Made by a program: the position numbers and the translations under genes. Below are positions 47,092 through 50,518 of a stretch of DNA of 64,000 nt, piece after piece (the stretch's first letter is position 1; each line of letters opens with the position of its first letter). Where the stretch lies: positions 13,181 through 77,180 of the forward strand of contig NZ_QFWV02000007.1 of NCBI RefSeq assembly GCF_003149475.2, in the 5' to 3' direction. Under the pieces are notes generated by a model, which worked only from the letters and a program-made list of their open reading frames with translations, made no database searches and was not told the DNA's origin. The DNA is from Oceaniradius stylonematis (GTDB lineage: Bacteria > Pseudomonadota > Alphaproteobacteria > Rhizobiales > Rhizobiaceae).

Positions 47092-47595
47092 TCAGCCGTC
47101 CGTCCGTGCGAAACCGATCTCGCCGACGACACGGTAGGTTTCTCCATCAATGGGCGCGCTTGCGGTTGTGATCGAGAAGCGATCGTCGCCGATTGTCCAC
47201 CGCATCTGTACCTTGAAGCGTTCGCCGGTGTCCGGATCGCGCCCCCGGAAGGAGACCGTCATCGTCTGGCCACGGCTGCGTCCGGAGACATTGGCGGCCC
47301 CCGCGCCGAACGGGTTCGACCAGCGACCGCTCAGTCTGCCCCCTTCGGCGGTCATCCGGCCCGAAAGGTCGAACCGCCGCCCCGGCGCCGCGCACGTGCC
47401 CGAAACCGACAAGCGCCCAAGAGCGTGATCGACCCGGTTGGTCAGGCGGCAGCGCACCCGCTCGCGCGGCGCACCGGGTTCGCGGCTCGCCCATCCCGCA
47501 CCCGCCCACTTGCCGCCAAGCGACAGAAGGGGTTCGGCCTTCGCCGGCCACGCTAGGCCGACCATCAGGAGCACAAGCAGGGCCGGGCGGATCAT
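47092..47595 (-). CDS. Small secreted protein of the MMPL operon, 167 aa
   Basis: A signal peptide ([20 protein letters not shown]) precedes a beta-rich domain with '[20 protein letters not shown]', '[20 protein letters not shown]' and '[20 protein letters not shown]'. The G/W-rich strands and a Cys pair suggest a small periplasmic beta-barrel or lipocalin-like fold, but I recognise no family. Its ATG overlaps the MMPL stop (ATGA), so it is made together with the transporter and could be its periplasmic partner. That partnership is inference. Confidence 0.6.
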
Positions 47596-49823
47596 CGGCG
47601 AAACCATCGTTGTCGCAGAAGCGCGGGCAGGAAGACCAGGTCGGCCAGCAGCGCCGTGATGAAGGTAAGGATCAGCATGGTTCCGAACAGCCGGACCGTG
47701 GCGAATGCGCTCAGATAAACGACCAGCAGGCCGACACACAACAGCAGCGTCGTCGCGATCATCGCCCGCCCGGTTCCCTCGAGCGATCGGCGCAGGGCAG
47801 CGTCGATGGCATGTCCGTCGCGCCGCTCGCGGTCGAACCGGCTGACGAAGTGGATCGAGTCGTCGACCGCGATCCCGAATGCGACGGTCAGCGCAAGCGC
47901 GGCCGTCGGTATCATCCGTCCGCCGTCGATCAGGTGCAGCGCCGCGCCGGCCAACGCCAGCGGCAACAGGTTCGGAAGCAAGAGGGCGATCGCCAGCATC
48001 GGCCAGCCAAGCGCGACCGCGACCAGCACCACGGAGGCAAGGCACGCCATGACCAGCCCGATCGACAACTGCTGGATGATGTCGAGCGGTTCGTGGCGCA
48101 TCAGCACCGGCAGACCGCTGACACGGGCTGCCCCGCTTGCCCGCGCGCTCTGTTCGAACCGGTCGAACCTGGCGAGCGCCGCTTCATCGCGCATCGGGTC
48201 TCCGATGGGCACCATCACGCGCGTGGTCTGTCCTTCTTCGGAGGCCAATTGGCGCAGAAGTGCCGGGGGAACGTCGGCGAGGTCTTCAGGTCCCGGCGGC
48301 CGTCCCGAAACGCCAAGCTGTGCCGCCAATGTCGCCAGCGAGATGACGGCCAGCTGCGGGTTTTCGGCCTGAAGGCGCTCGGTCGAGGCAACCAGGCTCC
48401 GCCAGCCGGATCCGGTTGTCCAGCCGCCCTCGGCCTCGAGATCGAAGTCGACCCAGGCACGGAAGAACCCGCCAAAATCCCGTTCTATGACATCGGATGC
48501 GCGGTAGACGGCGCTGTCCTGCGCCAGATTTCCGCGATATGTGAACCAGGGTTCGGTCAGCGACACGGCGAAGGTCGCTGCAAGCCCGATGAAGGCGCCG
48601 CAAGCGATGACGACGCGCCCGTGATTGAAGACGAGCTGGCCGAACAGGGGCGGCACGCCGACCGTGCGCCGCCGCCGAAGGCGCGCCGCGGCCCCGGCGG
48701 GAACGAACCGCGCAAGAAGGGCATAGCCGACCAGAACGACGAGATAGGCCGATATCGTCGACAGCGCGCCGAGCAGCGCCAGTTCCCGCAAGGGCTCGCT
48801 GTCGGCGATGGCGATGGCGGCGAATGCCACGGCGGTGGTGATCGCCGTCAACCCGCAGGCGGGACCGACACGGCCGGCGGTATCGGCGATGCGCTCAGGG
48901 GTCGGAGTGGTCGCCGGTGCGTCTTCAAGAAGATGCATGACCAGGTGCACGCTGTCGGCAAGGCCGAGCACCAGCACCAGGACCGGCACGACATTGGTGA
49001 TCACGGTGATCGGCAGTCCCGTCGCCGCGAATATCCCGAGCGTGACCAGCAGGCCGGCGGCCGCCGGTGCGGCGGTCAGCGCCGCAACGCGCAGATCGCC
49101 GAAGATCACCCAGCACATCAGGACACCCAAGAGGCCCCCGGCCACGTTCAGGCGGATCAGGTCGACACGCAGCGCTTCGACGATGTCGACCGCCATCGCC
49201 GGTTCGCCGGCGACGGTATAGGCAAGGCCGGGCGCACCGAACGCATCGGTCAGCGCTCTGATCGTCGCGAGCAGCGGGCGCGTCTCTGGGCTGCCGTGGG
49301 GCAGGTCTATGGCGACGGCCATCAACAGAGCGGTCCGATCCGGGCTGATCAGCGGCGGCAGCGTGCCGGTGAGTTCCGAAAAGGCCTCGATCCGGGGCTC
49401 CAGCGTGTCCGGATCGATCGGTTCGGGCACCATCGGCGCGCCGGGATAGGCCTCGTGGTCGGGCGGAAAGCGCAGCGCGAACGGCGACAGGACGTAGTTG
49501 ACGCGGCCGGTCAGCTCGAGTTCGAGCGCAAGGTCGCGCATCTGCCGATAGGCATCCGCCGAAAAGCCGGCCGGATGCTCGGCGAGAACGAGGATATCCT
49601 GTTCGGCCCCTCTTAGATCTTCGGAAAGGGCGCGATAGTCGCGCGAGACGGCGCTGTCCGATGACAGCGTGCGCACCACATTGTCGTCGAAGCGGAGCTG
49701 CGGCAGGACCGCAAGTGCGCCGAGCATGATCAGGCTCAGAACGAGCGCCGCTCGCACCGGATTTCGCGACGCCCAGACGCCCGGAAACCCCAGGACATCG
49801 AAAAGCGCGAGAGGCTGCTTCAC
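47592..49823 (-). CDS. MMPL/RND-superfamily exporter, 743 aa
   Basis: Two repeats of one helix, a large periplasmic loop, then five helices. The RND intramembrane acidic motifs appear as 'VLGLADSVHLVMHLLE' (first half) and 'AFGIAVDDSIHFVSRFDRER' (second half). This is the layout of MMPL-type exporters, which move lipids or other hydrophobic molecules, here likely as a stand-alone pump without an outer-membrane partner. The start is taken as GTG 49823, which overlaps the stop of the upstream gene (GTGA); longer frames upstream are shadows of that gene. Cargo unknown. Confidence 0.8.
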   Translation of the reverse strand: MKQPLALFDVLGFPGVWASRNPVRAALVLSLIMLGALAVLPQLRFDDNVVRTLSSDSAVSRDYRALSEDLRGAEQDILVLAEHPAGFSADAYRQMRDLALELELTGRVNYVLSPFALRFPPDHEAYPGAPMVPEPIDPDTLEPRIEAFSELTGTLPPLISPDRTALLMAVAIDLPHGSPETRPLLATIRALTDAFGAPGLAYTVAGEPAMAVDIVEALRVDLIRLNVAGGLLGVLMCWVIFGDLRVAALTAAPAAAGLLVTLGIFAATGLPITVITNVVPVLVLVLGLADSVHLVMHLLEDAPATTPTPERIADTAGRVGPACGLTAITTAVAFAAIAIADSEPLRELALLGALSTISAYLVVLVGYALLARFVPAGAAARLRRRRTVGVPPLFGQLVFNHGRVVIACGAFIGLAATFAVSLTEPWFTYRGNLAQDSAVYRASDVIERDFGGFFRAWVDFDLEAEGGWTTGSGWRSLVASTERLQAENPQLAVISLATLAAQLGVSGRPPGPEDLADVPPALLRQLASEEGQTTRVMVPIGDPMRDEAALARFDRFEQSARASGAARVSGLPVLMRHEPLDIIQQLSIGLVMACLASVVLVAVALGWPMLAIALLLPNLLPLALAGAALHLIDGGRMIPTAALALTVAFGIAVDDSIHFVSRFDRERRDGHAIDAALRRSLEGTGRAMIATTLLLCVGLLVVYLSAFATVRLFGTMLILTFITALLADLVFLPALLRQRWFRR

Positions 49824-50518
49824 GACGGCCCGTGCGCCCAAGCGATGCGTGCCCGGGCGTCCGTCCATGCCGACCAGCGCCAGGCGTGCAGCCATCGTCC
49901 CCAGACCGCGATCAGCCCGTTCGGGCTTTGCGCCGCAAGGCGCGAGCCCAGGAGCGGCCCTGCGGTCCGGCGATTGTGATCGCAAAAGGCGACCGCTGCC
50001 GCGGCGAAGGACCGGTCGCAAACCGAGCCGAACATCAGCGTTTCGAACACGTCCAGATCCGGCGGCCGGCCATAGCTCAGTCGGTGGTCGGAGACCGTGC
50101 GCACGATCGCGTCGCGCAAATCGATGGTCGTGTGGGCGTGCACGCCGGCGACGACGATCCGCCATGCATCGGCCGGTCGGTGCCGCCAGTGCGGACTGCG
50201 GCAGGCGTCGAAATAGGGCTTCCAGTGGGCCGAGCAGGGGCCGCGGCCGGCGATGACCGCGCCCACGCGCTCTTCATACAGTGCGAAGAAATGCGGAATC
50301 AGGCGGAAGACGATGTCGGCGTCCGGCTGGCCGCTCAGACGATCCAGCCAATGTATGGTCGAGCACCGGTAGAGGCGGGCGAACAGCTCATGCGGCGTGC
50401 CATCGAGTGACGCAACGCGTTGGCCGAGCCTGGCAGCGACCGTTTCGGCCGCTGCCTCCGGGAAGGGCGTGGCCCCTCCGGTGATCGCGCGTGTCGGTGC
50501 GGCTGCCGTGATCGTCAT
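49820..50518 (-). CDS. Uncharacterised protein, possibly DUF5995-like, 232 aa
   Basis: A soluble, Ala/Arg/Trp-rich helical protein with no signal peptide. 'RLIPHFFALYEERVGAVIAG' and 'WRIVVAGVHAHTTIDLRDAI' recall the 'NAHINLDL' helix of DUF5995 proteins, but the match is from memory and weak. The conserved His and Asp residues might form a metal site. First gene of the operon with the MMPL exporter (GTGA overlap) and the small secreted protein. Confidence 0.5.
   Translation of the reverse strand: MTITAAAPTRAITGGATPFPEAAAETVAARLGQRVASLDGTPHELFARLYRCSTIHWLDRLSGQPDADIVFRLIPHFFALYEERVGAVIAGRGPCSAHWKPYFDACRSPHWRHRPADAWRIVVAGVHAHTTIDLRDAIVRTVSDHRLSYGRPPDLDVFETLMFGSVCDRSFAAAAVAFCDHNRRTAGPLLGSRLAAQSPNGLIAVWGRWLHAWRWSAWTDARARIAWAHGPS

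What the first reader, a model, noticed from the sequence alone, without database searches (positions are those of the whole stretch)
47092..50518. Three-gene MMPL exporter operon with unknown partners
An uncharacterised soluble protein, an MMPL/RND pump and a small secreted beta-rich protein are joined by 4-base overlaps (GTGA, ATGA), so they are made together. A cytoplasmic factor, a pump and a periplasmic protein would form a neat export route for a lipid-like cargo, and I know of no described system with this composition.
Basis: inference. Interest (0 to 1): 0.6.

Follow-up and report, generated by a model that had tools for sequence, protein, structure and literature searches.

The report
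MMPL lipid-export operon with calycin partner
Three overlapping genes encode a rare helical protein, a lipid-type membrane pump and a secreted barrel resembling fatty-acid-binding proteins; the pump-barrel pair recurs across alphaproteobacteria, often beside lipid-making enzymes, and probably carries a greasy molecule out of the inner membrane.

Summary
On the - strand lie P0001 (50518-49820, 232 aa), an MMPL/RND transporter (49823-47592, 743 aa) and a 167-aa protein with a signal-like N-terminus (47595-47092), joined by GTGA and ATGA overlaps and under purifying selection. Pump and small protein form a widespread module: the small gene directly follows the pump in 67 of 80 alphaproteobacterial loci. 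The small protein is confidently predicted as a ten-stranded calycin barrel (nitrobindin Z 17, fatty-acid-binding proteins Z about 12) without nitrobindin's heme histidine. The first gene is a rare, all-helical DUF5995-like protein with no match among solved folds; four of its five known members lie directly upstream of this pump, including in Roseibium and an uncultured Rhizobiaceae. In related operons the same slot holds type III polyketide synthase plus methyltransferase, or a desaturase-family enzyme. Best reading: a lipid export route (pump to periplasmic carrier) with an interchangeable cytoplasmic lipid-making or lipid-handling gene, of which DUF5995 is one. New variant of a known kind (compare HpnN, BstABC).

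The parts
49820..50518 (-). P0001, 232-aa soluble all-helical DUF5995-like protein; invariant H129-x3-D133 and several conserved aromatics
   Evidence: PF19458 26.7 bits, cut-off 27; three relatives above the cut-off; AF2 pLDDT 83.8, pTM 0.81
49820..49823 (-). GTGA 4-base overlap of gene 1 stop and gene 2 GTG start
   Evidence: kept in G003
47592..49823 (-). P0002, 743-aa MMPL/HAE3-type RND transporter; conserved D290 in the first half and D654-D655 in the second, as expected for proton relay
   Evidence: (PF03176 77 bits, cut-off 20.5)
47592..47595 (-). ATGA 4-base overlap of gene 2 stop and gene 3 ATG start
47092..47595 (-). P0003, 167-aa secreted ten-stranded calycin-like barrel with invariant C49 and C68 facing each other across a predicted hairpin (likely disulfide)
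   Evidence: (pLDDT 91.6)

Best explanation
The operon encodes a lipid export route. P0002, an MMPL-type RND pump, uses the proton gradient to lift a hydrophobic molecule out of the inner membrane. P0003, a secreted calycin barrel, receives the molecule in the periplasm and carries it towards the outer membrane. P0001, a DUF5995-like helical protein in the cytoplasm, makes, modifies or hands over the cargo. It fills the gene slot that related operons fill with type III polyketide synthase plus methyltransferase or with a desaturase-family enzyme. Shown by sequence comparison: operon structure, conserved pump-barrel pair, recurrent trio, swapping of the upstream gene. Predicted: the two folds. 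Inferred: direction of transport, cargo class, carrier role, P0001 activity.
For: Overlapping genes under purifying selection. The barrel gene directly follows the pump gene in 67 of 80 loci. The barrel model matches nitrobindin at Z 17 over 142 residues (rmsd 2.9) and fatty-acid-binding proteins at Z about 12; family members hit DUF1579 and THAP4_heme-bd. Upstream slot: type III PKS plus ICMT methyltransferase in 11 close loci (L088, L099 and L104 overlap the pump gene by 4 bases); FA_desaturase family in G004 of the same genus (4-base overlap) and in G129; KAS III-like enzyme and outer-membrane barrel in G118; carotenoid biosynthesis family downstream in G072. Four of five known P0001 family members sit directly upstream of this pump, although the family is otherwise nearly absent: no further hit in samples of 289 and 385 genomes of the class and 398 of the phylum. 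All four trio pumps fall in one clade of 11 (support 96/96).
Against: P0001 has no fold or family of known function, so its role rests on gene position alone. The genome shows no convincing type III PKS, so the cargo of the neighbours cannot simply be transferred. The pump-barrel pair exists without P0001 in G029 at the same genomic place. No outer-membrane partner lies in this operon. MMPL proteins can also move drugs or other amphiphiles.
Confidence: 0.5

Rival explanations
1. P0001 is not an enzyme but a cytoplasmic adaptor or gate that docks on the pump, while pump and barrel export a lipid made elsewhere.
For: P0001 is small, wholly helical and matches no enzyme fold. It is translationally coupled to the pump and found almost only beside it. 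The pump-barrel pair also exists without it (G029).
Against: In related operons the slot holds enzymes. P0001 keeps an invariant H-x3-D pair and aromatic residues that would suit an active or ligand site, although only five sequences, two of them near-identical, are compared. A relative in G072 lies away from the pump.
Confidence: 0.2
2. General efflux: the pump with its barrel expels toxic hydrophobic compounds (drugs, detergents, solvents) rather than a self-made lipid.
For: The best NCBIfam match of P0002 is the hydrophobe/amphiphile efflux-3 (HAE3) subfamily (122 bits, below its cut-off of 352).
Against: Adjacent biosynthetic genes in related operons; no membrane-fusion protein or outer-membrane efflux channel in the operon.
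Confidence: 0.15
3. Heme or NO-related function: P0003 is a periplasmic nitrobindin-type heme protein and the pump serves heme or redox chemistry.
For: Closest solved fold is nitrobindin; 7 of 49 family members hit THAP4_heme-bd.
Against: P0003 has a single histidine, H57, beside a hairpin turn, and none in its last strands where nitrobindin's heme ligand sits; no histidine is conserved in the family alignment.
Confidence: 0.07

Closest known systems
BstA/BstB/BstC sterol transport proteins of Methylococcus capsulatus (PMC10942540)
   Same: MMPL-family (PF03176) inner-membrane transporter with a dedicated periplasmic lipid-binding protein, encoded beside genes that make the lipid.
   Different: BstB is a phosphonate-binding-type periplasmic protein and BstC an outer-membrane-associated protein of another family; here the periplasmic partner is a calycin barrel, and no outer-membrane partner is seen.
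HpnN hopanoid transporter (TIGR03480, NF052374; PDB 5khn/5khs)
   Same: Same superfamily; P0002 gives partial matches (54 bits) and a weak match to the solved chain.
   Different: Far below the family cut-off (751.85 bits). I know of no calycin partner for HpnN, and no hopanoid genes lie in this operon.
MmpL3 and other mycobacterial MmpL exporters (PDB 6ajf, 6n40)
   Same: Best matching solved chains for P0002; proton-driven export of lipid precursors.
   Different: The match covers about 140 residues at 32 bits; a mycobacterial envelope system with other accessory proteins.
Nitrobindin / THAP4 heme-binding domain, DUF1579, fatty-acid-binding proteins
   Same: P0003 predicted fold; some family members reach Pfam models DUF1579 and THAP4_heme-bd.
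   Different: Secreted, with a likely disulfide and no heme histidine; sequence identity to solved chains about 13%.
DUF5995 (PF19458)
   Same: P0001 scores 26.7 bits against a cut-off of 27; relatives L089, L090, L005 score 29.5, 33.3, 37.8. A DUF5995 gene of unproven role lies in the irumamycin polyketide cluster (PMC11672594).
   Different: Divergent branch, usually coupled to an MMPL pump; function unknown in both.

Membership tests
MMPL family (PF03176) | profile score above the curated cut-off | tested here: met
   77.1 bits against 20.5, two stretches
MMPL family (PF03176) | charged proton-relay residues in each half of the transmembrane part | tested here: met
   D290 and D654-D655 invariant in the nine aligned pumps; the relay role is from knowledge of the family
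HpnN hopanoid transporter | score above family cut-off | tested here: not met
   54.2 bits against 751.85
HAE3 subfamily TIGR00921 | score above subfamily cut-off | tested here: not met
   122.4 bits against 351.9, although it is the best match
DUF5995 (PF19458) | score above the curated cut-off | tested here: inconclusive
   P0001 26.7 bits against 27 on its own, marked over the cut-off in the genome search; three relatives score above it
Calycin / nitrobindin-like barrel | ten-stranded antiparallel barrel | tested here: met
   AF2 pLDDT 91.6, ten strands; Z 17.0, rmsd 2.9, 142 aligned to 4ymy; predicted, not solved
Nitrobindin (heme protein) | proximal heme histidine near the C-terminus | tested here: not met
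   no histidine after residue 57 of P0003 and no conserved histidine in 49 aligned members
BstABC-type sterol transport system | periplasmic partner of the phosphonate-binding type, with sterol synthesis genes beside it | tested here: not met
   periplasmic partner is a predicted calycin barrel; no sterol gene among the three

The most novel reading that the evidence does not exclude
A so far undescribed class of alphaproteobacterial lipid export, in which an MMPL pump works with a periplasmic barrel resembling fatty-acid-binding proteins and with interchangeable cytoplasmic enzymes, and in which DUF5995 is a new family of lipid-acting enzymes.
Probability: 0.3. Interest if true: 0.65.

Novelty: new variant of a known kind. 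Interest (0 to 1): 0.42.

Why it matters
How MMPL pumps of Gram-negative bacteria pass lipids across the periplasm is mostly unknown. A widespread pump-barrel pair, tied in some lineages to type III polyketide synthases and methyltransferases, gives a concrete candidate carrier and a likely cargo class (phenolic lipids) that can be tested in cultured roseobacters. It also gives DUF5995, a family without a function, a clear genomic partner.

Tried and rejected
A scan of the public genomes with P0001 alone found no relative; two of its relatives surfaced only beside the pump. Plasmid searches with P0001, two of its relatives and P0002 found nothing. PHROGs gave no match for P0001 or P0003. PDB sequence matches to P0001 (Pumilio, sulfotransferase) are weak and were set aside. 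The PKD match of P0003 (E 0.094) is taken as chance: the model is a ten-stranded barrel. Foldseek and VIA-align found no clear solved relative of P0001 (best E 0.25; best Z 4.8, below what helical bundles give by chance); this does not show a new fold. A type III PKS in the window's own genome as cargo maker was considered and dropped: the two hits are weak (24 bits, 27.9 with its neighbours against a cut-off of 27; and 22 bits) and look like FabH-type enzymes (the FabH reading is inference). Sigma-70 promoter scan: none found, uninformative in this high-GC genome.

Full report
Observation. The stop of each overlaps the start of the next by four bases (GTGA, ATGA). Upstream, a Na+/Ca2+ exchanger gene (PF01699) ends 80 bases before P0001 on the same strand; downstream, the rpsF-rpsR-DUF2232-rplI-dnaB block follows on the same strand after about 250 bases (names from my reading of the translations). 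The window lies in a 3.58-Mb genome, probably of Rhizobiaceae in the GTDB sense (inference from the relatives). A second genome of the genus (G003) has the same trio with the same overlaps, 87, 92 and 87% identical, with dN/dS of 0.31, 0.18 and 0.25. The genes are real and constrained.

Gene 2. P0002 is an MMPL-family RND transporter (PF03176, 77 bits). Its best NCBIfam match is the HAE3 subfamily, below that model's cut-off, and it fails the HpnN cut-off by far. D290 and D654-D655 are invariant in the nine aligned pumps, in the places where MMPL pumps carry their proton relay (knowledge of the family). The close subfamily of this pump is patchy: 7 of 397 genomes of the order at E below 1e-90.

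Gene 3. P0003 belongs to a family of secreted proteins. Among 80 loci fetched with the pump alignment, 67 carry a member directly after the pump on the same strand (four of these score low, and the profile was built from members found by tblastn in the same loci). P0003-like genes also occur without a nearby pump hit in some relatives. Forty-nine members were aligned: six positions are invariant, among them C49 and C68. AlphaFold2 gives a ten-stranded barrel with pLDDT 91.6, closest to nitrobindin (Foldseek E 8.6e-6; VIA-align Z 17.0, rmsd 2.9, 142 residues) and then to fatty-acid- and retinol-binding proteins at Z about 12. Fifteen of 49 members match DUF1579 and seven THAP4_heme-bd. P0003 lacks nitrobindin's C-terminal heme histidine, so a hydrophobic ligand is likelier than heme. 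A shared fold does not prove the ligand.

Gene 1. P0001 is DUF5995-like: 26.7 bits against a cut-off of 27, with three relatives above the cut-off. It is rare. In 151 relatives only the window genome, G003 and G072 have it; samples of the class (289 and 385 genomes) and phylum (398) showed no further case. Among the 80 pump loci, two more appear, both directly upstream of the pump: Roseibium sediminicola and an uncultured Rhizobiaceae. So four of five known members sit in this slot; the fifth, in G072, lies elsewhere. These counts are not independent, because the last two were found through the pump. The five sequences share H129-x3-D133 and several aromatic residues. The model is all-helical (pLDDT 83.8, pTM 0.81, from only five sequences) and has no convincing solved relative.

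The slot upstream of the pump. In eleven loci, mostly roseobacters (Sulfitobacter, Roseovarius, Planktotalea, Palleronia and others), a type III polyketide synthase and an ICMT-type methyltransferase precede the pump, some with four-base overlaps. In G004, of the window's own genus, and in G129, an FA_desaturase-family enzyme holds the slot. In G118 a KAS III-like enzyme and an outer-membrane barrel do. In G072 a carotenoid-biosynthesis-family gene follows the barrel gene. Many other, more distant loci have no recognisable biosynthetic neighbour, so the link holds for the close subfamily rather than for all. G029 keeps pump and barrel at the same rpsF locus without P0001. A tree of 32 pumps places all four trio pumps in one clade of eleven (96/96), which also holds one PKS-type operon, L088; most PKS-type operons form the sister clade.

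Interpretation. The constant part is a pump plus a periplasmic barrel; the variable part is a cytoplasmic gene that, where identified beside close relatives, is mostly a lipid or polyketide enzyme. The simplest account is export of a hydrophobic product, with P0001 as the local maker, modifier or presenter of it. Operon structure, pair conservation, trio recurrence and slot swapping are shown by sequence. Folds are predicted. Transport direction, cargo and the activity of P0001 are inferred.

Known systems. MMPL transporters with periplasmic lipid-binding partners exist: BstA with BstB and BstC in Methylococcus bind sterols (PMC10942540). HpnN is the hopanoid case. The present system differs in its barrel partner and in the variable enzyme slot. 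Searches of the held literature for an MMPL-nitrobindin or MMPL-type III PKS pairing showed no such description among the papers listed; the library lacks many subscription papers. The only held paper naming DUF5995 places it in the irumamycin polyketide cluster without a proven role (PMC11672594).

Verdict. Observation confirmed; interpretation partly supported; a new variant of a known kind, of moderate interest, with the type III PKS-methyltransferase-pump-barrel operon as the most useful lead.

Noticed in passing
L088 8321-12693; also L094, L095, L097, L099, L100, L104, L106, L109, L155 and L098 (L098 and L099 without the barrel gene): Operon of type III polyketide synthase, ICMT-type methyltransferase, MMPL pump and usually the calycin barrel, mostly in roseobacters; looks like a phenolic-lipid synthesis and export operon that I did not find described. 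The pump in L109 looks frame-broken (split into several reading frames).
   Followed up: partly
L118 8724-12908: In a same-genus genome (G004) an FA_desaturase-family enzyme overlaps a related MMPL gene by 4 bases, followed by the barrel gene.
   Followed up: partly
L122 10001-13619 (same place as L086): Nitratireductor arenosus: MMPL pump, barrel gene, then a carotenoid-biosynthesis-family (PF04240) gene in a row; the same genome has a DUF5995-like gene elsewhere (L005 1336-2133).
   Followed up: partly
L069 4567-9315: G029 keeps pump and barrel at the same place next to rpsF-rpsR-rplI-dnaB but without P0001, so P0001 was gained or lost at a fixed locus.
   Followed up: partly
L105 7367-10911 and L116 8830-12238: A predicted membrane protein of about 360 aa (seems YcjF/DUF697-like to me) precedes more distant MMPL pumps in two genomes.
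   Followed up: no
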